The translations under genes were made by a program, and so were the position numbers. Below are positions 3,209 to 31,000 of a DNA stretch of 64,000 bases, one piece after another (the first letter of the stretch is position 1; each line of letters opens with the position of its first letter). The notes under the pieces are model-generated. The model searched no databases. It was not told the DNA's origin and saw only the letters and a program-made list of their open reading frames with translations. The stretch is from Puccinia triticina. Its lineage: Eukaryota > Basidiomycota > Pucciniomycetes > Pucciniales > Pucciniaceae. The stretch is taken from positions 5,642,001-5,706,000 of the forward strand of contig NC_070561.1 in assembly GCF_026914185.1 (NCBI RefSeq), written 5' to 3'.

Positions 3209-3486
3209 TACCCCCCATCTGTATCCTCCATGTTGTACAAACGCGCCTGTGTTGTATATCTTAAAGCCTGTTGAAAATGTTCATGACATCGTTTTTGACT
3301 CTATATAATATACTACGTACAGCGATTCGCCTTGAGTCTGAGGAATGTCATGAGCAACGGTCATGAGATGAGCAACCGTCGCAGATGAGCCTTGACAAGG
3401 CTCATCCGGAAGACTGGAATCAGAAGACAATGTCACATGGCCCAGCCGAATAGAATGAGCGTAAGAATTGGCCGAGGCTTGCAGAA

Positions 3487-3494
3487 TATAAATA
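3487..3494 (+). promoter_or_regulatory. TATA box for the secreted protein at 3616
   Basis: TATAAATA lies 122 bp upstream of the ATG, and a C-rich, probably untranslated leader follows it. Position and sequence fit a TATA-driven promoter. Confidence 0.6.
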
Positions 3495-3615
3495 GCCACC
3501 CCCCACCCACTTTGGTTGCCTCCTCATCAGCATCAACAGGACATCTCCAGCCCCACCTCCCCGAAGCCCAGCCAACGAATAGATCCCGCCTTAAACACCC
3601 AGTCCACCTTTCGAC

Positions 3616-3909
3616 ATGCGTTTCACCATCGCCGCCGCCCTGTCCCTCGCGCTACTGAACTCGGTCTGCGCCAATTTCCTCGGGGGCGTCCTCCAACCGG
3701 TATCACTTTTGCCAGTCCCATCGATTTTCGGTCAGCAAAACGGCGGGGTTAGCTGTGGCAACCAGGGCAATGCCGCCTTGAACGCAAACATTCTTACCCA
3801 GGTCCAGTGCAGCGGAGGCGACAACGCCCCCCAAATCAGCTGTGGCAACCAAGGTCACGCCGTCGCCAACCTCAATGTGCTCACCAGCATTGACTGCGTC
3901 AGCCAGTGA
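3616..3909 (+). CDS. Small secreted protein with two C-x17-C repeats (candidate effector or surface protein)
   Basis: Single-exon 97-aa ORF with a clear signal peptide (residues 1-19, cleavage probably after VCA). The mature part holds two imperfect repeats, each starting SCGNQG and closing with a cysteine exactly 17 residues later (CGNQGNAALNANILTQVQC and CGNQGHAVANLNVLTSIDC), separated by a Gly/Asn/Asp-rich linker. There are four cysteines, so it is not a hydrophobin (eight). The Asn/Gln-rich alternating pattern resembles short amyloid-like surface proteins such as chaplins, but homology is not claimed. It has a TATA box upstream and a probable 3'UTR intron downstream. Role inferred: cell-surface or effector-like secreted protein. 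Confidence 0.8.
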   Translation: MRFTIAAALSLALLNSVCANFLGGVLQPVSLLPVPSIFGQQNGGVSCGNQGNAALNANILTQVQCSGGDNAPQISCGNQGHAVANLNVLTSIDCVSQ

Positions 3910-3952
3910 GGACAACTTGTCCGGGCCCATCGAACATATTCGATTCCTGGAG

Positions 3953-4024
3953 GTAGGCACGCTTCTTTTGACGCCCAAAAGCGTGCAAACGGCCACTGAC
4001 TTACTTGCATCCTCATTGCTCCAG
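3953..4024 (+). other. Probable intron in the 3'UTR of the secreted-protein gene
   Basis: GTAGGC donor, CTGAC branch site and TTGCTCCAG acceptor define a 72-bp intron starting 43 bp after the stop codon. No coding frame continues through it, so it is read as a 3'UTR intron; alternatively it marks an alternative C-terminal exon. Confidence 0.4.
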
Positions 4025-4940
4025 CCCTCTTCATCGGTTATCGAAGTAGGACTTGCTGCCTGAACAATCGGCTTTACCCATCTGCGCAGGTCCCTCCTGA
4101 AAGATGCTGTTTTTCTTTCTGATAGTTTCACATTTACAGCCATCCATCGCTCTTTACCCACTTGTTTCAACAGCACTTTCTTCACCCATAATTAGTTTGA
4201 GCCTCTTGTACACGCCTTGAAAGTATTCGACATTCGTTTTTTCCACTTGCTTTCGTCCAACCGAGAGATTGGCTCAACCTGGACATTCAACCAGTGACCA
4301 ATGTGATGAATTTTGCGAGATGATTCTGTCCAACGTTTGGTGGGGTCAAATCACCACATAAATACCACCTTAATTAACAGGCCTATCACAGTGCTACTGG
4401 AGGATCAATCGTTCTCAATGCGTGCCCTCGGGTGGACATAGCGCGGCGCGATCTGCCTTGGGACCTTGAAATTTGGTTCTCGCTTACATCGCGAACCTGA
4501 ACGTAGCCTAAACAAAGATCACCAATGTAGATGAGCGCCGAGCGGTACAACCGGCCACGGGGAGGGGGAACACACAACTCCCCTCGATGGCCAGGTTGTT
4601 CCGGTCATTGAGCCTCAATGACTGGTCCGTTCCAGCAGTTAAAGCACCCGCTTCCCGGGGAGGCTACTCGGCATGTCAGTCGCTTTTTTTTGTTGCACTT
4701 TTTTTTGCTGTTGTTGCAAATCCACAACCAAATTATATGTGTCAGCATATATCGGCGATCACGCTTGAGCCGGGTAGCTGGTCCATACACCCCGGGCAAA
4801 CCGGGGTCATGACAGGCATACAGGTTGCACAGTCCTGCATGTCACATAAAAAATTCCCGCGCCCTGTGTCATGCATCATTTGCAGGACAGGCTTTCATGT
4901 ATGTGAGCTGTAGCTGACAGGTCTGTGAAAGCCTCTGCAC
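4025..4940. other. Intergenic repeat-rich DNA, no gene
   Basis: AT-rich intergenic DNA to about 4380, then scattered copies of a CCGGTCATTGAG / CTCAATGGCC repeat word that is also dense at 5340-5700, 16.1-16.9 kb and 45.8-46.2 kb. No coding signal was found. Confidence 0.5.
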
Positions 4941-5206
4941 AGGACCCTGGAACGCGCGGCCAGAACACAGTAACGAAAATCAATTCAAAACCGTGGGATT
5001 CATACATTTTTGAAAGAGGTTTTTCTTCATTTCTTTCAAACTTTTGCCACATGTTTAGGATAAGATGGCAGTACATTATTTTCCCTTTAAGCGTACATGT
5101 GCCCATCTTTTCAGATTGAGTATATCATGTTTAGTTGTGAGCCAAAGTGGCTTGGAACATTCATACATTTTGGTTACTATGTTCTGGCCGCGCGTTCCAG
5201 GGTCCT
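4941..5206. mobile_element. 266-bp non-autonomous hAT-type MITE with 8-bp TSD
   Basis: Terminal inverted repeats of about 38 bp start AGGACCCTGGAACGCGCGG and continue GCCAGAACA; the two arms differ at only a few positions. The element is flanked on both sides by the exact 8-bp duplication CTCTGCAC (4933-4940 and 5207-5214). The interior is AT-rich and noncoding. An 8-bp TSD fits the hAT superfamily; short size and near-perfect TIRs suggest a fairly recent insertion. Confidence 0.85.
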
Positions 5207-5214
5207 CTCTGCAC

Positions 5215-6875
5215 AGTCACTGTGCATGTGACATGTTGGAGATGTGAGCTGCATGTCATGATCCGGACAGCTTGTCATGTATATGTGACAGGACCTGCAT
5301 GACCTGACATGCATACAGGACCATGCAACCTGTACAGCTCTCATGACCCCGATTTGCCCAGGGTGATACCGGTCATCAAGGTAGAACTCTTGATGCCGGG
5401 TGCGTATATCCTACTTTCTCGTACATCCGGCCATCGAAAGGAGTGCGAAATGTCCTCTCAATGGCTGGGGTCATCAAGAGCAACACACTGATAGCCGGCC
5501 ATCAAGAGGGTGTACACACTCCCATCAATGGCCCATCTATTCCAGCCATTGAGGGGAGTGTGAATCTCCTCTTGATCATTGTCAGGTACACACTCCCTTC
5601 GCGACCTGCCATCCGGCCTTCAAGAACAACTCACCAAGCCTTCAATGGCTGACCCCAACCGGTCATCGGGAGGGGATCAAACTACTCCCCTCAATGGACA
5701 TTTTGTTCCGGCCATTCTGGTCCGTTCCAGTAGGACCAATACCCGCGCCGGCAATTGGTATTGACCCGCGCCGGCGATTGGGACCAATACCCGCGCCGGC
5801 GATTGGTATTGGTCATACTGGATGAGATCCTCCCGCGGCTGGGTGGGAGGGTAGGCACCTGAGATGGTCAGCATACGTACTTGACCTTTTTTTTTTGTGT
5901 GTACATAACCATGGTGATTCTACCAAAGCAGAATTGCATAATCCGCTGGGTTGATGTGAGAATTGGAGTTACGTGTTATTACTAAGAGAAAATTACTAAT
6001 GATGACTAAGAATGATATGCGTATTTATGCATGAAAGCTAACTTAATTAGTTTGTTAAGATTCTCGGCCTTCATTTGAATTTCCGATACGAATAACCTTG
6101 GGAATAGGAAATACGGATTCCTTTTATTTTGTGATTAGACTTGTAGCAAGAAATCCAAAAGCAAACGCGCACAGACCTTATTGTAAAATATAAAAGAAGC
6201 TTCCTTTCTTAATTGTACCTTTTCCCCATCGTAATATTTTTGTTCTTTTTGTATCATTATCATCAGCGCAAATCCAATCGTTATCTTATCCAAATCCATA
6301 TCTGAAGAGAGTCCTTATAAGAAATCAATCCTTTATAATTCTGAAGTGTGCCTGTCGTTGTCATTAGCTTGTCTGTAGACATTTGTGAGAAATCATCTCT
6401 GGCCTGTCCAATCTTCAATCGTAATACTCTAGTCATTACAGTCGACCCTGCGGTTGGGGTTTTTTTGGTTCCCTCCTTTCCATTGTGCCTCTTCCCATTT
6501 GTCCTTATCTTTGTCAAGTTGTCAAAACGACAACCCTCCATATTTAGTTTGGCAGCAGGGACTCGCCAATTCTACCTGAGTCCGATGCCCAATTGGATGT
6601 TCTTGAAAGTAAAGACGGCGCCAGCCCCCCGTTAGTCCAGACAGCGCAGAAGCAAACGCGTCTCCGCTGACATAAAGCGCGGCGACAGGACCACCGATGA
6701 CGCGGCAAGTCAGCCACTCCACTGGATAGAGGCCGCTGCAGCGTGGAATGTACTCGGTAATTATACGCTGGGGTTCTGAGGCGGCTCCGCCGCCTGTACC
6801 TAATTCACCTTTGTGATGCTTCCCAATTGCCTGTCTATTTGTTGTTGAAATAGTATATTAAGCCACTATCTATGT
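5215..6875. repeat. Dispersed-repeat region without genes
   Basis: 5215-5340 is rich in CATGTGACATG-type words. 5340-5700 carries degenerate GGTCATCAAGAGGAGT/CTCAATGGCC repeats. 5734-5812 is a short tandem repeat (ACCAATACCCGCGCCGGCGA, about three copies, partly inverted). 5880-6875 is AT-rich with no recognisable coding sequence. Confidence 0.5.
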
Positions 6876-7678: not shown

Positions 7679-8934
7679 ATGTCCACCTCCGAGGAACTGG
7701 AGCTCAAGGCAAATCAAGAAAAGGCCAAGGCGCTCGTCGAGGATCTGCGGGATGTGAACAAGAAGATTGCTCAACAGGAAGTAATCAAAAAGGCCAAAGC
7801 CAAGATCAATGATAAACGAACCTACGAAAACAATCGACTTGCCCATAAAGAACGAAAACCGAATGCAATGATTAAACCCGAGGTCCGCGAACTCATACGC
7901 GAGAATGTTATTGGAAGCAGTATGAAGGTGGTTGATGCTGAGAAAACCTTCAAAGTATCGCGACGTCAAATTCAGCGTATCAAAGCTGAAGATCCAAACC
8001 TTGTCAAGACGCAAAAAAAACGCCCCAGCAAGTTCACCGACGAGATGAAGACTGAGATCCTCATGCAGCTTGATCAGCGATCCTCGACTACACTTCCAGA
8101 GCTTGCTAAGTTCCTCAAGGACGAGTTCGACGTCAAAATATCGACTCAGGCAATCAGCAACCTGATCCATGATATGGACATATCATGGAAACAGGCTACC
8201 AACATACCGGCGTCGTGGAATCAGCCCTACCTTACTCAGCAACGGGCTAATTTTGTGAATCGCCGTGGGCTTGATCTTGGGCGGAAGGTCGTGTACGTCG
8301 ATGAGGCTGGATTCGATCTTCACTCGGGTCGATCTCACGGATATGCTCCCTCCGGTAGGTGTTTTCTCTTCCTTTCTTTTTTGGTTTCTTGCTGACTTTT
8401 GCGTTGAATCAAGGCCAACCTGCTGTCTTGAGTCTTGTACCCAAGGCGAAGCAGGTGACCTTGATAGGTGCCCTGTCGGAGGAGGGTTTCGTCTATCACG
8501 AACTCCTCAACGCGGACAACACCAAGGCTAAGGGGGTAGGCGCGGATCAGTTCTGCCTCTTCCTTGGGAGCCTTGGTGCTAGGCTTCCTCCCGATTCTAT
8601 AATCATCATTGATAATGCTCCGATCCACCGAGGCGAGCGCTTTGACGAGGTCCGACAATCGCTCAGCACCTCGAAATCGATTCAGATCGAATTCCTTCCG
8701 AAATACTCCCCGTTCCTCAATCCAATCGAGTACAGCTTTCACTCGATTAAAACCTATGTCCGATCAAAAGAGCCGCCCAATCAAACAGCTTTAGTTACCG
8801 AGATCAAGAACGCAATCAACGAAGCAATTACCCCGGAAAAGTCAACCCATTTTTTTTCTCATTGTCGGCGTCTTTACCGCCCATGTTCTGAATACCAGGA
8901 AATCACTGGGCCCATCTTGGCTGCCCCTTCCTAA
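7679..8934 (+). CDS. Tc1/mariner-IS630 family DDE transposase, intact frame
   Basis: Cut-and-paste transposase acting on the TIRs of its own element. Exons 7679-8354 and 8414-8934, with an intron GTAGGT...CTGAC...TCAAG; 398 aa. Residues 1-60 are Lys/Glu-rich and coiled-coil-like. A helix-turn-helix region follows (about 65-160; VSRRQIQRIK and TLPELAKFLKDEF). The DDE_3-type catalytic domain has VVYVDEAGFD (first D), SIIIIDNAPIH (second D) and YSPFLNPIEYSF (E). The second D and the E are separated by 38 residues, longer than the common D34E. No stops or frameshifts. It lies inside the dead Harbinger transposase and shares no decay with it. Confidence 0.88.
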
Positions 8935-21799: not shown

Positions 21800-22890
21800 T
21801 TGTTTCTACTCATCCCTAAAAATCCCTACAATTTATACTCCCACCATTGCTGCCTTTTTATCCTCCTCTATCGGCATGTTTTCAGACCAAAGATATCCAA
21901 CACTTATGAGTCCCCATCCATTCAGGTCTGTCTCTTATTATGGTCATGTATTCTTTCTTACTATCTTGTAGACCTTGATCCCTGATTAGATTATATTTTC
22001 AGTTTTCCATCTTATTGCTTATGCTCTTGTGTGCGCACTCTCTGCTGGGGATATTGATGTACCTTTTGAAATTTCACAATGAGTTTGTGAAGTTTCAAAT
22101 TCATTAACATTTTATTTTGCAGCCTGACTATTTACAAGTGTAACTTTGGTCTTTTGGGCTTGAACTTACATTAATAGCCCGCCTGAAATACTTGTAGCTG
22201 ATGTAATAATCCTGGGCTCCTTTTGTCCCTCTATTCAGGCTGAGGGCAAATGTCCAGCACCAGGAGGAGCTTGTCTCTGGGTCCAATATGAGCCTGCTTT
22301 TTACTGAAGTCTACTTATTGACTATCTTCTGGGGGATGAAGGCTCTGGGGTTAATTTTAGCCTTGGGCTGCATCTGAGACCTGTCAATAATTATGAAGAT
22401 ATGGGATCTGCAAGAATCTACCAAAACAAAAAAAAAAAAAATGAAAGGGTCCAAGCTTCTTGGAAAGCAAGTATACCTGTGCTTGTCCATGTTGTTTCTC
22501 CGTTTTTTTTATGATTGGGCACCCTCGAGGGTGCAGGGAATGTGTATTATGTCATGTGCAACTGTCCCTGGGATTACATGATTACTGCCAATGACATAAA
22601 CCACCCCGCAGCACCACTTTGTTCTTTTTTAACAATGAAATTACACCTGCTAGCCACTAATTAAACTTATTATTGGGAGTTTTTCCCCGTTCTGCCCGAC
22701 CCCAAGGCCCCGGGCCTTGGCAAGGGCCCGGAGTGTCAAGAAGCGCCGGTGGCTGGTGGAGCAAAGGGCTATGTACCTTTTTTTTTCTCAGCAGTCCCAA
22801 AGACCTGATTAATTTTTCGATATTGGAGCACAGTCACGGAAAATGTGTTATATGAATTGAAATCCAAACATCCTGCTGTTGTACATTTTA
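21800..22890. other. No gene recognised
   Basis: AT-rich DNA downstream of the decayed ORF, with a GC-rich patch near 22690-22760. It lies beyond the stop codon of the 16-exon minus-strand gene and probably includes its terminator region. Nothing else supported. Confidence 0.4.
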
Positions 22891-25809
22891 TTACAAAAGA
22901 TCACAACCTAGATACAGTACTGCTTTCCAACTACAGCAATATTGATGCACAAGAAGAACAACAGAAAAAGAGAAAATAAGCAAGAAAGGAAAGATTGAGA
23001 GGTTCAGCCGCCTTGCGGAGACTGGAGCCAGACCATCCTGCCGATAGGAAGTGGGCACTATTTTGCGTCGGACGGGTCCTGGACACAAAACCTCGCGATG
23101 TTTGTCCCACGAAGGGTTGTCATAGGGCCAATCATCCGGGCTTGCGAAGTCCATGTGACCTTGGTGGAACTGCTTGTGCGGAACTTCATACACTAAATGA
23201 AAGAATTGACACGAAGATGATTAGGAAAAGAAAACAAGGAGTGAGAGGTCGTTTGGATGACAAGGGACATACATTTCTAAGGTCGATTTTTACACTTTGC
23301 CTGGTGTTTCACCAGGTCACTTAAATGCTTGTATTCTTTTTCACACTTAGGGAACGTGCATTCATCTGGTACGAGTCAAAAACACAATAAAAATCTTCAG
23401 TGCTGGAATTCTTTTGCCTGCAGAAATGGGTGAATGAGAAAACTTACACGAGGGTCCCGGATCAATTTTGTGCGGACCCCTGAGGTGCCGCCTCAAGTTG
23501 TAGAGATCTTTCCTCTCATACACTTTTGTCACGCCCTTGTTGAGACAGGCAAGGCATTGTAATTTCCCATGCGGCCACTCGAGCACATGCTTATCGACTG
23601 CTGAATCTTCGCCTGAATGCAAAAAGAAGTTAGTTCTGGTTGCTCTTATCTGGGTTTATGATCACGTTTCTGAGAGCTTGGAGGGAAATGAATGAGTTAC
23701 CTAGCATGCAACGTGGCTTCTTGTTTTGTGGTTCGCCTGACTGATCGCCTTCAGTTGGTTCAGCGGCTGAAGGGGAAATCAGAGTTAGTTCTAGTTACTC
23801 TAATTTGTTTTTATTATAAATTTTCTAAGAACGTTGAGCAAAATGGGGATAAGTCACCTCGTTTGCCTTTCGCCCGCACTGTTCTTACCGACTGGGAAAC
23901 CTCGGCAGTCTTTTTGGATGCGCCAACAAATTCCGCTTGGCTGGCAAGGGGAGAGGGGCTGGGCGCAACTATGCCGGCTGCCGCGGCTTGAATACCATTT
24001 ACATGGCGTGGCAGTTGAGGAGCTACGGTTAATTTTTTGAAAATATCATATCAGCCGCAGTGCAGATATTTGTGCAGGAAAATATAATGACCCACCATGT
24101 GAGGACCGGAGCGTTGTCGCCTGGCCGCCATTGGCCAAACTGGGCGCGAACTGACGGGCTGAGGTAGACAGACATTAGAAAAGACATGATTTATCAGGAA
24201 CAATCGAAGATGGATTAATGGGGGCAATCTGGGCCCATCATTCGAAGGGAAATAGAACGAACCATCAAAATGAGCATGTGTACCCATTGCCATCTGCGGA
24301 CTGAATGTAGTAGGGTTTTCGTATTGTGACGATGCTGTGGTCAAGGTTGTGCAGAAAATTGCATCAGCAATGATGGAGGATTGGAAGTAAAAGAAATGAC
24401 TCACCATACGGGGATGGCCTAGAGGCGTCGCGTTGAGGACCCACTGCCACCGGTGCAGCTGACCTGGCCGGGTTGGTCAAAGTCCATGCTACGGGAGAGG
24501 TTTTCCACAGAATCGTATCAGTTATCGGAATTCTGAGTGAAATTGATACGCATATGAATACTCACGATCTGATGCCAAGAAAGGGGGGCAGCCTTCGGCG
24601 AAGTTGGTTGTACGCGGAATGGCTGTGGGAAATGCTGAAGGAACAGAAGCTTATCAGCATTCATGCAGAATTCATGGAGAGAAATAAGAACTGACCATTT
24701 GAAGCCTGAAATTGTTCAAATTCTTCAGGAGTAAGCGCCACGTACGGGATCGGCGCATTTGATCCAGCCGGATTAGTTGATGGCGATGCTACAAAGAGGT
24801 TTTCCACAGGGTAGTTTCAGCTATATTGTATGGATCAGGTGCATGTCAAGGCTTACCATATGATTGCAGTGAGGATGGGGAGCTTTCGTCGACCAGACTG
24901 GGTGTGAAGGATGGGGCTGCAGTAGAGATGATAGTCACAAAGGTGCGTCAAGAAAATGCGGAAATCATCAGCATCATCAACTCACGATTGATTGTGCGCG
25001 AAAAATTTGAATGTTCCTCGAGGGGAAGTTGCTGCTCTGAGATTGGGCCTATTGATCCGGTGAGGATTGCTGGGGCCGATGCTACGTAAAAGTGTTCCCT
25101 CAGCATGCTTTTGTCATACTTCATAAATGTCGATGAATGAGGCTCACAATCTGACTCAAGATATGAAGCATCCAAGCAGGATGCGCCATTGCAATGGCTG
25201 GGTGGAAGAATGTGGCCTGTGATGCGAGCCACAGAAATGAATCAATAACAATGCTAAAATCCCGAAAATATCATCGCCTCACCCTTTAAATTTTGCAACA
25301 AGGATAGATATCCCTCATCGGAAGATGACTGCGGTGCCATTGGCCCCATTGGTTCAGCTGGGCTTGCTGGCGCCGATGCTTCAGATGCGTGGTTCCACGG
25401 CATGTTATCAGTCATGCTGCACAACTCTAGATGAATGTGAAAGCTTACACGGTGAAGCATGTAAGGAGGGTGCTACATTGCCCTGGTTGGGCGCAAGAAA
25501 TTGGGCTAAATTAAAAGTGCAAGTCACAGGAATACATCAGCAACAATACGGAAGTCATGATAAAATTTTGAACCCACCATCTTGAGGCGGAGTGACCTCG
25601 GAATGCAAAGGATCGTTTTCCCCCAAAGTCATTGGCGCAATGGGCACATCCGGGTTTGCTGGTCCTGGTGCAATCACTGGGACGGGTAGTCGCAAATGCT
25701 CGGGGAGAGCAGAGCCCCAGAACTTGCCGTCCTCATCGGATATAGATGCATACCTATCAATATCTGAGGCGCTGCAGGGATATTCTTCAACAAAGCCGGA
25801 GTATTCCAT
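22891..25809 (-). CDS. 16-exon modular protein with C-terminal zinc-finger-like motifs
   Basis: Unknown function. Exons: 25809-25578, 25505-25449, 25378-25283, 25216-25148, 25081-24986, 24916-24857, 24788-24696, 24634-24566, 24488-24405, 24334-24263, 24158-24096, 24022-23858, 23766-23701, 23612-23448, 23365-23294 and 23192-22891; 1761 nt, 586 aa. All 15 introns are phase 1 with canonical ends, and the frame stays open throughout. Exons 2-11 form a tandem array of about 300-bp two-exon modules; odd exons encode variants of SAPASPAEPMGPMAP (others: SAPAILTGSIGPI, SPSTNPAGSNAPI). The low-complexity N-terminal part is followed by a basic segment (KKTAEVSQSVRTVRAKGKR), then CLAC...HLRGPH (C-x2-C-x19-H-x4-H) and YECTFPKC...LVKH. 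Retaining the last intron gives a C2HC finger ending KCKNRP and a stop. The C-terminus is hydrophobic. Possibly a nucleic-acid-binding regulator. Confidence 0.72.
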
Positions 25810-26030
25810 TGAGTGATTGAGAGTGGGATCGGATGGGTTTATCAAAGGGTATGAAGGATGAGTTTATGGAAGGGTAGGAAAGACGAGTTTCTGGAAGGCT
25901 AGGAAGGATGAGCTTATGGAAGGGGAGGAAGGATATGGCTTTGAGCGTCTGTGGAAGAGGGAATGATGTGGCTTTGAGTGTCTGTGGAAGAGGTGGTTTG
26001 GGAGAATCTGATTGCCAGCGTGTCTGTACC

Positions 26031-26039
26031 TCTTTTATA
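26031..26039 (-). promoter_or_regulatory. TATA box of the 16-exon gene
   Basis: TATAAAAGA on the minus strand, about 225 bp upstream of the ATG at 25809. Between them the leader has a duplicated block (CTTCCACAGACGCTCAAAGC, twice near 25935-25990). Confidence 0.5.
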
Positions 26040-26059
26040 GACGAGGACACGATAACCAT

Positions 26060-27790
26060 CTGCCCTCAGCCTCATGGCTTCTCTCATTTGGCCGGTAGAG
26101 TTTAGTTATTTTTCTTTGGCACCGGAGAGTTGTTAACCCCTGACTCTCTCTCCGTCCAGCCTAGAGAAGAATTCTGTGGTGGTGACCATCAGCACCTTTG
26201 TTCTGGGGAGAGTATTCAGTTTTCTTTCTAGCCGATCAGAAGTCCCCGGCTCTAACTCCACCCAAACTGCCTTACTTCCCTGAGGTAAATAGATACAGCG
26301 CTGGTTACCACCTGTTCAACATCTATTGATCGCTGGTGGAAAAAATTCTGGAGGCAGGACAATCGAATTCGGTGACTCGCCCTACTTTTTATTGCTCCGT
26401 CCTAAGGGGATCTGCCATAAAGTGCATGGAAGGTGGCATATACTTTGCTGAACTTGAACATCTCATGGATCCTTTTTACTTACGCAATGCCCCACTCACC
26501 CCTAGACCCGATATTGTTGAGGAGAGAATACCAACATACAGCAGCCAGCTCAGAGGCGTGACTTTTCGAGCGATGAATTTTAGCCTAGGACTCCCCTGGG
26601 CTTGGCCAGAGCTGAGGTGCTGTAGAGTATTGCAATAGGCATCGATATACCCTGTGGACCTAAGGAAAGATATGGCCAGGTCATGTAAGCAGTCTGTTTG
26701 GGGAGAAATGGTGTCCGGCTACCTGTGGCCGCCACAATAGTACGAGTCTAAACTTTATTTAAAACCAGAAAAACATACGAACTCGGCCATGGCACTAGCT
26801 TGCAAACATCTACCCGCCGCCAATTCAGAGGAATGAGAAGGCAGGATACCCTGATCTCGTTGCTATGGAAGGTTGTTTTTGGTTGCGTGAAGCGCGGCCA
26901 GTTTTTTTTATTGTTATTTTTTTGTTGGAGGTGACTGAGTTGGAAAAAAAGTTCAAATTCTATTGGGCATTGTATTTGGCAGGTTTACAAACTTTCTACG
27001 AGAAGTATTTACAAACAGTCAGTGATAAAAAAAAAGTACAAATGATTTGATGAAAAAGTCCACTCCCTGCACAAGTCCATGCAATATTACGACAGATTGT
27101 GGTTCATGATTGAAATGATGATGGTTTGTTTGTGGTGCTTTATCCGTGTGTCCTCGATGAAGTGTCTTTTGCAGTGACGGCGGTCAAAATGGCCACGGCA
27201 AGTAGCGCCGGTGGCGGTAATGCAGCACATTTCCATCCCTCTAAACTTGGGGTCTGGGGATCAAAGACCTGATGAGGTGTAGAAATGCAGTAGTCAGTCC
27301 ATGACGGTATTTGTGCCGCGGTGAAGACAGACTAACATACGATCACAGAAATGCGCCAACCAAGTCTGCAGCCACGAGCAAAGCTCGCAATGTCATTCAG
27401 ACATATATTGTCATTTGCATTTGTATGGTGAGGCGCTTATATTTTTCTACGCCGGAGAAACCAACGAGCTCCCGGTCTCCCGAAAAAAGCTGCAGGGTGG
27501 AAGTCAACGATCTAGTGGGGTGAGGTTCTGGGGGTCACCGATCTAGTGGGGTCTAAAGGGGAAGCAGTCAGTCCATGCCGCGAGGGGGTTAATACATTAA
27601 GATCACAGACGTGCGGGAACCGAGGTCTCACCACGACCAACTTACACAGTCACAACCACATCCATCTCCGGGGCCGGCGCAACCATTCAGACAACGTCCT
27701 TATTGATGTTGCTACAATGTTCGCTAAGCCCCCCCGGAAAACAGACAAAGAAATTTTCAGATTTCCGAATGGCTCAGCGTCCGGTAATGC
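26060..27790. other. No gene recognised; weak internal duplication
   Basis: Short ORFs (for example 26336-26638) show no family pattern. 27270-27400 and 27550-27680 share diverged blocks (CAGTCAGTCCATG, GATCACAGA), suggesting an old local duplication that may belong to the kinesin-like remnant next to it. Confidence 0.35.
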
Positions 27791-27792
27791 AT

Positions 27793-28160
27793 CTACACTG
27801 GAAGGGAAGAAATGACAAAACAACTCGACTCTACCCAGCTTATTTGAATGGCGGCTTTGGTTATCATCTTGATTTCCCCGCTCTGGGTTTGATATCGAGA
27901 CACCTGTTCCTCTGGCGAGAGACTGGCATCACAGGTGTCTCGGCTATGACCTTCCGTGGTCCGAGGCCGCAGAGTATCGACTTCTTCCTTCAATTGTCCG
28001 ACCAGTCTAGCATTAGGGTCCTCATTCACGACCGCCTTGTCCCAGATCTTCTTCGCTTGATTGGCATATCGTAGGTTGGATTCTCAATTGGCCGGACTGA
28101 TGGTAATAATCCTAGTCCCACCAAGACTGTCTTTCAACCGAGGGAGACGAAGCTTGGAGT
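27793..28160 (-). pseudogene. Kinesin motor-domain fragment, copy 1 (kinesin-3-like)
   Basis: On the minus strand: SKLRLPRLKDSLGG, then ITISPAN, a stop codon, and [38 protein letters not shown] (continuous). This matches the end of the kinesin motor (LLKDSLGG...SPA...TLRYA) and the neck of kinesin-3 proteins (VNEDPNAKLIRELKEE). The family glutamates around the stop are lost and no upstream motor exons are recognisable, so this is a fragment of a gene, not a working motor. Confidence 0.6.
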
Positions 28161-28242
28161 CCGAGGCTTGGGACATTGTCGGACCTTACCTCGCGCACGC
28201 TGGCCATTCCCTTCCAGTCTCCGGGGCGAAAAGCTTCTGAAC

Positions 28243-28830
28243 TTACGATTTTGATATCCCCATTCCTGGTATGACGTTCACAGATTTGTGTTCGGGTGGC
28301 AGACTGACATAATCGGTATCGTGGTCATGGCATCCGTTCATCCGACAACGCCGAGTATCACGGGTTTCCTTCAATTGCCGGATCAGATTGGCTTCGGGGT
28401 TCTCATGTGTCCCTGTCCTGTTCTTATAGGCATGTTGCAAGACCAAAGGGAATTTGTTTTCTTTGTAAAGCAATTTACCTTCGTATTTCCCCTCATCATC
28501 TGGTGTGTTTGCAGATGACGCGGGCTCGGTTTGAGTGACTTGGGGCCTTTCGACACGAACAAGACGAAGCTTGGCTTTGAGGATCGTCAGACCTTCACGC
28601 CAGACACAATCTCTCACTACACGGCCAAATTGAAAGAAAACATACTGAACTTCAACGAAGAAGATTTTGTGGGCAAATCCAATTGACTCGCAACAGCTCC
28701 TCAGGCGCGAAACACTAAAATCTCTTACAATAGGGCCAAATTGAAAGAAAAGGAGCCTAATTTCAATTAAATGGCACGGTATGGGGAAATTGGATTCACT
28801 GGCGACAGCTCCTGAGGCGCAAAACATGAG
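28243..28830 (-). pseudogene. Kinesin-like fragment, copy 2 (more decayed)
   Basis: The minus-strand frame contains AKLRLVRVERPQ and, downstream, GTHENPEANLIRQLKETRDT, aligning with SKLRLPRLKDSLGG and [20 protein letters not shown] of copy 1. The following Asp/His-rich and PPEHKSVNV segments also align with copy 1 (SPEEQVSRY). It is a tandem, diverged duplicate about 0.5 kb away. Confidence 0.45.
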
Positions 28831-31000
28831 TTCAGTTCATTTTTATAATGTTTTTCATTTCATTTCATTGATTTCACTTAAGTGGAGGCTATCCACAGCT
28901 GAACAAGATTCACACTGACATGATTCATCCTCGATGTCCTGACTCCAGATACTCTTTGCTGACTCTTTTACATTGCTCCCCATGGATTACTATGGTATGC
29001 GGTAACAGCTTAAGGCGCCCAAATTTCCTTACTTCGTGGTATTAGTAGGCCGCGGTGGAATCATCTTCCATAGAGCGATGTGAAAGCTCGGTAGCGCCTC
29101 GACTCAATCGACAATCACTTTTGCGCCGTTTGGGTGAATGAATGTGAACGGGTATGTGCATAGAGTATGACCTGGAAAACAGAAAGACATTTAAGGTGAG
29201 CCACATGTTTTACAATGTGACTTTTTGGGGTTCTATGTTGAACCGAGAAACCTTACACTGTGCTTTGTGGCAACATCCTTTTGAGCCACCCGCCTGCAGA
29301 TGAAATCATCTACGTGGAGGTCTAGCGACATTTCGCTCGCCTCGCAGCTTGGGCCGGCCGGCCTGAGGAGCTAGGGATTTTGCAAGCAAGTGTCCACAAG
29401 CGCTCGTCTGATCAGCGGTCGATGGGTCCTGATGCATGCACAGCAGGAAAAGAAATTTATGTTAGGATCCCTAGGAAAAGCCTTTTGCAGGATGGTATAA
29501 CTTGGTATGTGTGGTGTTAAGCTCACGTATCGAACACAGTAGTAGCGATGGGCAGAAGGGAGTTGGATTTGGATCGAGGATCCCGAAAGATTCGCGGAAT
29601 TTCTGGCCGAATCTGGCCACGTCATACTCCGGAGAAGGGTCCACACATTTCCTCATCTAAGGCCACCTGATGGGTTTGAGCCTTGGGGGTCGAACGGAGG
29701 TAAGCGGACTGTGGTAGCACGATTCCATTCTTTACGTTGCGCCCGAGTTAATTTGGGATCGGCGAGAAAGACAGGATGGTCAGTTCAGAATGCAACAAAA
29801 AAAAAGCTCGCCTGAAGAAATAGCAGGCAACTGAGCGATGACTTACCTGTATCCACTCATGAAGGATCCTTATCCTTGACCTTCAGCTCGAGATTTGTTC
29901 AGATGAGGGGATCCTCCCCCCGGTGCGTCATCTCGGGTACCCGAGACTGCATGACACCTGCATGGCACAATAAACTCGCCGGCATCCGGATGCCACAGAA
30001 CGTCGCCCAACATCAACGCGCTCCGGCTCAATCTGGCTCAATAATTCATCATTGAACCTCTTACTCAGTCAACACTCAAGGTTCTCGGATCCTCCGTGGC
30101 GGTGCACGCGCCCCGGGAGAAGGGTCAGAAGTAAGACTGTGAGACCACCTTCCCCCATAGGCAAGGATTAGACCCGAGAAGTCGGGTCCGGTACCAGGTA
30201 TGCGGTATGCCGACATGAGACCGTCGTACCCGGTGCCCGGCGCCGGAATGTTTCCCATTTTGGGCATGGCCATCAATCGGCGTCCTCGTTTCAACCTCCA
30301 CCCGCCCGGGACTGCACAACTCCCACCCTCAACCACGCCTCTAAAGTTGATCCCTCACATTGTGATTGATGAACAAAACTGACAGTACACTAGAGGCTGG
30401 AGCACATGCCAAGCTCCAGAATCTTGTGCGGACGGATGCCCGACACGGGTCAGATGTGCTCGCGCGGATGCCTGGCCCGACACCCGACCGGGTATCTCCG
30501 GGTCTACAGGATCCGGATACCCGTAGACTCCGGTTCCAGGCTGTGGCCCATAGTTCTCTCAAAGTTGCTGTTCGTTGTCCTACGTCAGTTAAGCGCCAAG
30601 CCCAGTTATTTCGTTGTTAGCCTCGAGGGCAAACCGAGGAGATGATGGACAAGGTCGGAGCTCTTTCCCGACAAGTCGTGAGGAGAGCACACCCTCGACA
30701 ACATCTATGGGGCCGGTGTGCTCCCTCATCAGCGAATACGGCGAATCTTGCGGTCTCCGCTCACAGTGCACACCCACCATAGCTATCGCTCGAGTGAGAA
30801 GAGATAGCACAATCAGCCACGATGAGAGAAAATCAAGTGATTCCTGCAGTTCTCTTAAGGAAACGTGTAGATTGACTGTAAACCTTTCCCAGTGATGGAG
30901 TCGATGTTCTCCAAACATTGTACATGAGCCCTGCAATCAGCTGGGTGCGAAGAAGAATTCTTCCACCGCAGGAGTGAAGACTCTTCGAGCGTAGTCGTCC
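28831..31000. other. No intact gene; possible exon remnants
   Basis: 29520-29650 on the minus strand reads PSPEYDVARFGQKFRESFG before a GTGAGC donor and could be an exon of a lost gene. 29.9-30.6 kb has GGGTACCCG-type palindromic words. 30.6-31.0 kb is the upstream region of the secreted-protein gene. Confidence 0.35.

What the first reader, a model, noticed from the sequence alone, without database searches (positions are those of the whole stretch)
22891..25809. Gene built from a tandem array of two-exon modules, every intron phase 1
Sixteen exons give a 586-aa frame with 15 phase-1 introns. Odd-exon starts fall at 25378, 25081, 24788 and 24488 (steps 297, 293, 300) and even-exon starts at 25505, 25216, 24916, 24634 and 24334 (289, 300, 282, 300). 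Exons 3 and 5 are both 96 nt. Module exons start CATCG and encode S-x-P-x-x-x-P-A/T; introns also share blocks such as CTGTGGAAAACCTCT. So genomic units of exon+intron+exon+intron were duplicated in tandem. Symmetric phase-1 exons can be gained, lost or skipped without breaking the frame, which could generate length variants upstream of the zinc-finger-like end.
Basis: partly seen in the sequence, partly recalled or inferred. Interest (0 to 1): 0.87.

Follow-up and report, generated by a model that had tools for sequence, protein, structure and literature searches.

The report
Accordion zinc-finger gene in leaf rust
A predicted zinc-finger gene of the wheat leaf rust fungus has its front half built from repeated two-exon units whose predicted introns all interrupt the code at the same codon position, and related genes in the same genome carry about three, four, five or six such units, so whole units were likely gained or lost without spoiling the protein's reading frame.

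Summary
The finding is real; its details need correcting. The window is Puccinia triticina Pt15 haplotype A, chromosome 4. On the minus strand, 25809-23277, lies a predicted gene with 15 coding exons, 491 aa and 14 phase-1 introns; a public race 1 model aligns with it without a gap. The two-exon module array is confirmed (neighbouring modules score 40-115; their shuffles reach at most 39). It starts inside exon 1, and exon 10 is odd-type, so the order is OEOEOEOEOOE.

The strongest evidence came from relatives in the same genome. Two near copies (98%, 89%) keep the structure. A distant pair has 4 modules. A third pair, 84-90% alike, has 5 and 3: the arrays differ by exactly two modules, with the break in or next to a same-class intron, and the shorter gene also has an in-frame duplication that made a chimeric exon. 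All introns modelled in these genes are phase 1 (splice sites partly chosen by analogy).

Likely mechanism: recombination between homologous phase-1 introns changes the length of a predicted disordered tail on a predicted C2H2 protein. No transcripts were examined; splicing-based length variants are untested.

The parts
25578..25809 (-). Exon 1: ATG; its last ~110 nt are an odd-type module half (M0)
   Evidence: (M0-M1 115, shuffle max 30)
25449..25505 (-). Exon 2, even type
25283..25378 (-). Exon 3, odd type
25148..25216 (-). Exon 4, even type
24986..25081 (-). Exon 5, odd type
24857..24916 (-). Exon 6, even type
24696..24788 (-). Exon 7, odd type
24566..24634 (-). Exon 8, even type
   Evidence: weak in 61: 0.00 odd vs 0.05 even
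24405..24488 (-). Exon 9, odd type, without an even partner
   Evidence: 1.60 vs 0.02
24263..24334 (-).
   Evidence: 1.04 vs -0.10; starts CATCG
24096..24158 (-). Exon 11, even type; end of the module array
   Evidence: -0.16 vs 1.88
23858..24022 (-). Exon 12, linker
   Evidence: matches exon 9 of paralogue E
23701..23766 (-). Exon 13, basic linker; flanking introns 12 and 13 are themselves a repeat (63 nt, 75%)
23448..23612 (-). Exon 14, predicted first zinc finger
23273..23365 (-). Exon 15, predicted second zinc finger, stop TAG, then four 3'UTR bases
24096..25687 (-). Module array O E O E O E O E O O E; introns 1-8 alternate between two classes, introns 9-11 could not be assigned
22891..23192 (-).
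22887..22892 (-). AATAAA, possible polyadenylation signal
   Evidence: sequence
26033..26039 (-). TATAAAA, possible core promoter; a TATA-like stretch also stands upstream of the ATG in paralogues E, K and K2
   Evidence: sequences; upstream conservation
22117..30120 (.). 8-kb duplicated block: an inverted copy 95% alike stands on the same chromosome

Best explanation
The gene at 25809-23277 (minus) is a predicted C2H2 zinc-finger gene of Puccinia triticina whose front half is a tandem array of homologous two-exon units, all 14 predicted introns of the coding part being phase 1, and the array likely changes length by recombination between same-class introns. Shown: the units are homologous in exons and introns; two exon classes and, for introns 1-8, two intron classes alternate; paralogues differ in unit number; the arrays of K and K2 differ by exactly two units, with the break in or next to a post-even intron. 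Inferred: such exchanges keep the frame because every unit is bounded by phase-1 introns; K2 probably lost the two units, because K's own units are less alike (62-72%) than the K-K2 counterparts (89-90%). Predicted, untested: the array encodes a disordered tail of tunable length in front of a nuclear DNA-binding part, so unit number would tune contacts with partners rather than DNA recognition.
For: Module homology at DNA level: M0-M1 115, M1-M2 95, M2-M3 76, M0-M2 66, M0-M3 61, M3-M4 43, M4-M5 40, each above all 60 shuffles of its pair (7 of 15 module pairs); 15 of 15 pairs with a flanking control stretch and 6 of 6 with the exon 13-14 tail lie within their shuffles. The true odd/even labelling is the best of 35 distinct 4+4 splits in each of four sets: A introns 1-8, E introns 1-8, A exons 1-8, E exons 1-8 (2 of 70 with mirrors). 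Public models: PTTG_26504, 491 aa, no gap at any junction; PTTG_12680 starts at an internal Met of my E model and follows it without a gap, 99% identical, up to its last residues. A-C indels: 1 in exons, length 3; 10 in introns (6,3,1,2,1,1,1,4,1,1). A-C dN 0.096, dS 0.222. Phase 1 at 14 of 14 introns in A, 12 of 12 in E, 14 of 14 in K and 12 of 12 in K2. K-K2: 11 of 11 paired exons differ by 0 or a multiple of 3, while 3 of 9 intron pairs outside the break differ by 2, 1 and 1 nt (K exons 3-6 and K2 exons 7-8 have no partner in that table); the alignments K2 6192-5421 to K 6388-5605 and K2 5509-4827 to K 5139-4457 overlap over K2's intron 2. Fingers: Pfam zf-C2H2 in K 35.4 bits, cut-off 25.2; the A1 profile finds GLI, E 8.2e-5.
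Against: No transcript was examined. I chose splice sites by hand; for K and K2 no public model was compared, so uniform phase 1 there rests partly on analogy; no Pt15 model of the window's own copy was seen. Seven of 15 module pairs are not significant (M1-M3 35, M1-M4 26, M2-M4 29, M0-M4 29, M1-M5 33, M2-M5 22, M0-M5 33) and M3-M5 32 tops its shuffle maximum of 31 by one. Introns 9-11 fit neither class clearly. The module tree is unresolved between subfamilies. The public model PTTG_04351 reads exons 5, 6 and part of 12 in another frame, and the Pt15 model of C, PtA15_4A727, has two more residues at the exon 11-12 junction. Constraint is weak: K-K2 dN 0.130, dS 0.137; A-B 22 replacement to 5 synonymous changes. 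The third-position excess (81 vs 45 and 43) is not a clean sign of coding, since my intron control gave 24, 23, 41. In A itself Pfam zf-C2H2 is below cut-off (18.5 vs 25.2). The fold model is poor (mean pLDDT 37.9, 4 sequences), so 'disordered' is weakly supported.
Confidence: 0.8

Rival explanations
1. The array exists mainly for alternative splicing: symmetric exons are skipped to make protein length variants, as reported for schistosome micro-exon genes.
For: Exons 2-14 (13 of 13) have lengths divisible by three and phase-1 ends, so any skip would keep the frame. The public models of C and of an A-like gene use different sites or frames near exons 11-12.
Against: No transcripts were available; the public models aligned contain all the array exons downstream of their start. 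The property follows automatically from duplication of one phase-1 unit.
Confidence: 0.2
2. Decaying repeats: the array is a relic in a degenerating gene family, with no function for the modules.
For: dN/dS near 1 in K-K2; apparently degraded head-to-head copies on C5 and C11; exon 9 without an even partner; two fingers in A where E has three, which could be a loss.
Against: Seven gene copies keep open frames over 12-15 exons (A, B, C; E; E', first 12 exons only; K, K2); exon 1 of A-C has dN 0.020 against dS 0.177; exon indels keep the frame.
Confidence: 0.2
3. A transposable element or pack-type unit spread the gene together with captured host fragments.
For: The gene sits in a duplicated block of about 8 kb found in both orientations, and the block holds a kinesin-3-like fragment.
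Against: No transposase was recognised by eye among the frames listed, but Pfam was run on only two frames of the block outside the gene. The copy ends differ (22117-30120 for A-B, 22806-30372 for A-C), as in segmental duplication. Ends were not tested for terminal repeats.
Confidence: 0.1

Closest known systems
Aphid bicycle and megacycle genes (PMC9168663, passages read)
   Same: Many small exons of one phase: almost all internal exons start at codon position 2, the same as here; the megacycle protein appears to have evolved by internal tandem duplications that share intron positions; fast evolving.
   Different: Aphid; putative effectors; micro-exons, about 17 exons on average. Here: a fungus, no hydrophobic N-terminus by eye, predicted zinc fingers, and a two-exon unit with two intron classes.
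Schistosome micro-exon genes (PMC5825161, passages read)
   Same: Symmetric exons; internal duplication of an exon pattern (MEG-26).
   Different: Exons of 6-36 bp, secreted or membrane-anchored proteins, protein variants confirmed by proteomics. Here array exons after exon 1 are 45-159 nt and no variant is shown.
SP7-like effectors of arbuscular mycorrhizal fungi (PMC11333574, passages read)
   Same: Fungal family with 6-11 imperfect repeat units and a bipartite nuclear localisation signal.
   Different: The passages describe one conserved intron before the first repeat; here introns lie inside every repeat unit. Zinc fingers are not mentioned in the passages I saw.
C2H2 zinc-finger transcription factors (GLI, SWI5, YY1)
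   Same: C-terminal fingers resemble these by sequence.
   Different: Only 2 (A), 3 (E) or 4 (K) fingers by eye, each on its own phase-1 exon, behind a modular tail.

Membership tests
Tandem exon-module duplication with symmetric exons | Repeat unit includes exon and intron and is homologous at DNA level | tested here: met
Tandem exon-module duplication with symmetric exons | Unit boundaries in introns of one phase | tested here: met
   (predicted splice sites)
Tandem exon-module duplication with symmetric exons | Unit number varies between related genes in whole units | tested here: met
   K 5, K2 3; E 4, A six odd and five even exons; but A, B and C do not vary
Tandem exon-module duplication with symmetric exons | Junctions used in mature transcripts | not testable with these tools
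   no reads; public race 1 models, whose gene set incorporated RNA-Seq (PMC5295586 passages), agree for a B-like and an E-type gene, one A-like model differs in frame
C2H2 zinc-finger protein | Pfam zf-C2H2 above curated cut-off | tested here: inconclusive
   K 35.4 vs 25.2: met; A 18.5 vs 25.2 and E 15.0 vs 25.2: not met
C2H2 zinc-finger protein | Binds DNA | not tested
   sequence likeness to GLI and SWI5 only
Secreted effector (bicycle or MEG type) | Signal peptide | not tested
   no signal-peptide program was run; the N-termini (MEYSGFVEEYPC, MNHSGYVEHYHC, MSSPFFDTVNER) show no hydrophobic stretch by eye

The most novel reading that the evidence does not exclude
An accordion gene family in a fungus: zinc-finger proteins whose tail length changes in whole two-exon steps, because each unit carries its own pair of homologous phase-1 introns that serve as recombination sites, so that introns act as frame-safe hinges for protein-length evolution within one genome.
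Probability: 0.55. Interest if true: 0.72.

Novelty: new variant of a known kind. Interest (0 to 1): 0.62.

Why it matters
Exon-shuffling theory (recalled) says symmetric introns let modules come and go without frame damage; many same-phase, like-sized exons are called rare in most genomes (PMC9168663 passage). Here one fungal genome holds 3-, 4-, 5- and about 6-unit versions, and in one close pair the region of the break can be read. That makes module turnover directly testable in isolates and sister species, starting from a genome published as phased and gapless (PMC9927501).

Tried and rejected
Rejected: the 16-exon, 586-aa model. Rejected: 'exons diverge faster than introns, hence positive selection': exon 0.114 vs intron 0.087 (P 0.037), but 0.088 vs 0.080 (P 0.52) once CpG sites are removed. 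Rejected as clean evidence: third-position excess, since the intron control also deviates. Led nowhere: a tree of modules across subfamilies (low support); structure prediction (mean pLDDT 37.9; no fold search made on it); homeobox search to place the mating locus (two hits, on C1 and C3, although PMC10627818, passages, puts the b locus on chromosome 4, so the search probably missed it); relatives outside P. triticina (only four P. triticina proteins, by a word-based search that scored 7,995, 5,625 and 7,994 candidates). Loci L035 and L036: in L035 I read one stretch, with only a short finger-exon scrap; L036 was fetched and not read. L013 and L016 were compared by blastn only. Literature searches for this family or for tandem exon modules in fungi (title and abstract listings) showed no paper on it; two searches looked for the genome papers.

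Full report
Where it is. The window is G000:C4:5642001-5706000 of a genome of 122,823,596 bases in 18 contigs. That is exactly the size given for Pt15 haplotype A of Puccinia triticina (PMC9927501, Table 1 seen as a passage). The four proteins of this family found in the public set all carry P. triticina names.

The gene. On the minus strand an ATG at 25809 opens 15 coding exons ending in a TAG in exon 15 (coding part 25809-23277): 491 aa, 14 introns of 61-104 nt, all phase 1. Exon 1 is 232 nt; exons 2-14 (13 of 13) have lengths divisible by three. I prefer the 491-aa model for three reasons. The public race 1 protein PTTG_26504 has 491 aa and aligns without a gap at any junction. The stop and last Cys are kept in A, B and C. 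The frame of 'exon 16' shows 2 synonymous to 7 replacement codon changes between A and B and 2 to 14 between A and C, codons gapped in C left out. The gene set behind PTTG names incorporated RNA-Seq (PMC5295586, passages), so that agreement is indirect support from transcripts, not a test. I saw no Pt15 model of the window's own copy.

The array. DNA units cut at odd-exon starts were aligned pairwise with 60 dinucleotide shuffles each (there M4 is exons 9-10 and M5 exons 11-12). Of 15 module pairs, 7 exceed all their shuffles: M0-M1 115, M1-M2 95, M2-M3 76, M0-M2 66, M0-M3 61, M3-M4 43, M4-M5 40. One is marginal: M3-M5 32, shuffle maximum 31. Seven lie within shuffles: M1-M3 35, M1-M4 26, M2-M4 29, M0-M4 29, M1-M5 33, M2-M5 22, M0-M5 33. 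All 15 pairs with a flanking control stretch and all 6 with the exon 13-14 tail stay within shuffles. So neighbours are clearly homologous and far ones have drifted. Introns 1-8 fall into two classes, after odd and after even exons: for introns 1-8 and exons 1-8 of both A and E, the true alternating labels are the best of 35 distinct splits. Introns 9-11 of A could not be assigned (1.88 vs 1.82, 1.37 vs 0.15, 1.26 vs 1.09). By peptide, exon 9 and exon 10 are both odd-type and exon 11 is even-type (leave-one-out 14 of 16 correct; the two errors are even exons 4 and 8 of E). The order is therefore O E O E O E O E O O E. Modules are 52-60% alike within A, while the same module in A and C is 85-95% alike, so the array is older than the A-C split.

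Near copies. B (C4:5579410-5581719, 98%) and C (C4:6656553-6658862, 89%) carry the same exons and frames, 491 and 490 aa (read with A's borders). The Pt15 model of C, PtA15_4A727, has 492 aa, two more residues at the exon 11-12 junction. A-C exon indels: one, of 3 nt; intron indels: ten, of 6,3,1,2,1,1,1,4,1,1 nt. A-C dN 0.096, dS 0.222; exon 1 is most constrained (0.020 vs 0.177), exons 2-11 less so (0.108 vs 0.212). A-B has 22 replacement to 5 synonymous changes. A and B lie in an 8-kb block copied in inverted orientation, window 22117-30120 = C4:5583092-5575140 at 95%.

Distant copies and unit number. E (L014 minus from 5069; inverted copy E' in L015) reads as 13 exons, 498 aa, 12 of 12 introns phase 1, with 4 modules, then linker and three finger exons. 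The public PTTG_12680 starts at an internal Met of this model and follows it without a gap, 99% identical, up to its last residues. E' differs at 13 of 1498 exon bases. K (L017 minus from 6063) reads as 15 exons, 540 aa, 14 of 14 phase 1, with 5 modules; a 112-nt stretch recurs five times in it at spacings 280, 271, 279, 286; four fingers by eye. K2 (L034 minus from 5869) reads as 13 exons, 504 aa, 12 of 12 phase 1, with 3 modules. One genome search with the K protein found K, K2 and weak matches to the E-type genes, and one with K2 DNA found only K and K2. For K and K2 I chose sites by analogy and had no public model; K2 intron 3 starts with GC.

The natural experiment. K and K2 match at 84% through exon 2 (K2 6192-5421 to K 6388-5605) and then at 87% from K's post-even intron 6 and exon 7 on (K2 5509-4827 to K 5139-4457); the two alignments overlap over K2's whole intron 2 and a few bases on either side. 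By eye (sequences printed) K2's intron 2 is K-intron-2-like almost to its 3' end, so the break lies there or just beyond. K's exons 3-6, two modules, have no counterpart in K2: module identities are K_M1-K2_M1 0.89, K_M4-K2_M2 0.90, K_M5-K2_M3 0.89, while K_M2 and K_M3 reach only 0.61-0.72 to any of the other modules compared. Within K the modules are 0.62-0.72 alike, so they are older than the split, and loss in K2 is the simpler reading (inference). K2 also has a duplication of about 350 bp (K 4653-4303: even exon, linker, start of the finger exon) that fused a finger-exon start to an even exon in frame. In 11 of 11 paired exons the lengths differ by 0 or a multiple of 3 (five differ), while 3 of 9 intron pairs outside the break differ by 2, 1 and 1 nt (K exons 3-6 and K2 exons 7-8 were left out as unpaired). 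Against strong constraint: dN 0.130 and dS 0.137.

What it likely does. The C-terminal part resembles C2H2 fingers: Pfam zf-C2H2 35.4 bits in K (cut-off 25.2), below cut-off in A (18.5) and E (15.0; zf-BED 20.1 vs 20.6), and the family profile finds GLI at 8.2e-5 and SWI5 at 4.7e-4. Basic stretches (KGKR, NKKPR, LKRRK) by eye suggest nuclear import. The array is predicted to be unstructured (pLDDT below 50 over residues 1-222 and 230-408), from a poor model with four sequences. I infer a nuclear DNA-binding protein with a flexible tail whose length is set by unit number. Function is not shown.

Chance. Fourteen same-phase introns would be rare if independent (about a third each, recalled), but the introns are copies; counting post-odd, post-even, the intron 12/13 class and intron 14 as separate origins leaves only four or so, so phase uniformity alone is modest evidence. 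Module homology and the K-K2 difference carry the case.

Evidence against, in one place: no transcripts; hand-chosen splice sites; weak constraint; a public model, PTTG_04351, that reads exons 5, 6 and part of 12 in another frame, in an assembly using 454 reads, where indel errors may explain it (inference); seven of 15 module pairs not significant; introns 9-11 unassigned; an unresolved module tree; no unit-number change among A, B and C.

Noticed in passing
window 27796-28083 (-), and weaker at 28246-28836 (-): A kinesin-3-like fragment (Pfam Kinesin_assoc 31.3 bits, cut-off 29.5; KIF13B chains E 5.6e-9) upstream of the gene, inside the duplicated block; the second stretch looks like a degenerate repeat of it by eye, without a Pfam kinesin match.
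   Followed up: partly
window 22117-30120 and C4:5575140-5583092; C4:6655918-6663391: About 8-kb segmental duplications of the gene block, one inverted with about 81 kb between the two blocks; their ends do not coincide.
   Followed up: partly
window 24100-25599 vs L009: A-B divergence is patchy: 0 of 500 bases at 25100-25599 but 24 of 500 at 24100-24599; race 1 protein PTTG_26504 mixes A-like and B-like residues. This suggests gene conversion.
   Followed up: partly
L012 about 3600-5930 (C11) and L013 about 3460-5420 (C5): Head-to-head half copies matching only exons 12-15, exon 14 apparently duplicated in tandem, apparently degraded (one stretch of L012 read). Described only.
   Followed up: partly
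L016 about 3980-6445 (C4:7.255 Mb): A third E-like copy broken into pieces in opposite orientations.
   Followed up: no
L017 3641-3760: A 24-bp unit repeated in tandem inside K exon 14 (GEMVPRSS-like); K2 is 96 nt (4 x 24) shorter in that exon.
   Followed up: partly
L034 5367: K2 intron 3 begins with GC instead of GT in my model.
   Followed up: no
window 23628-23690 and 23783-23845: Introns 12 and 13 are 75% alike over 63 nt and match introns 9 and 10 of E: a second, older exon duplication outside the array.
   Followed up: partly
window 25831-25934 and 25927-25993: Tandem repeats of 25 and 33 bp between the TATA-like site and the ATG.
   Followed up: no
window 7679-8934 (+): Adjacent frames look like a DDE-type transposase by eye (recalled motif; not searched).
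   Followed up: no
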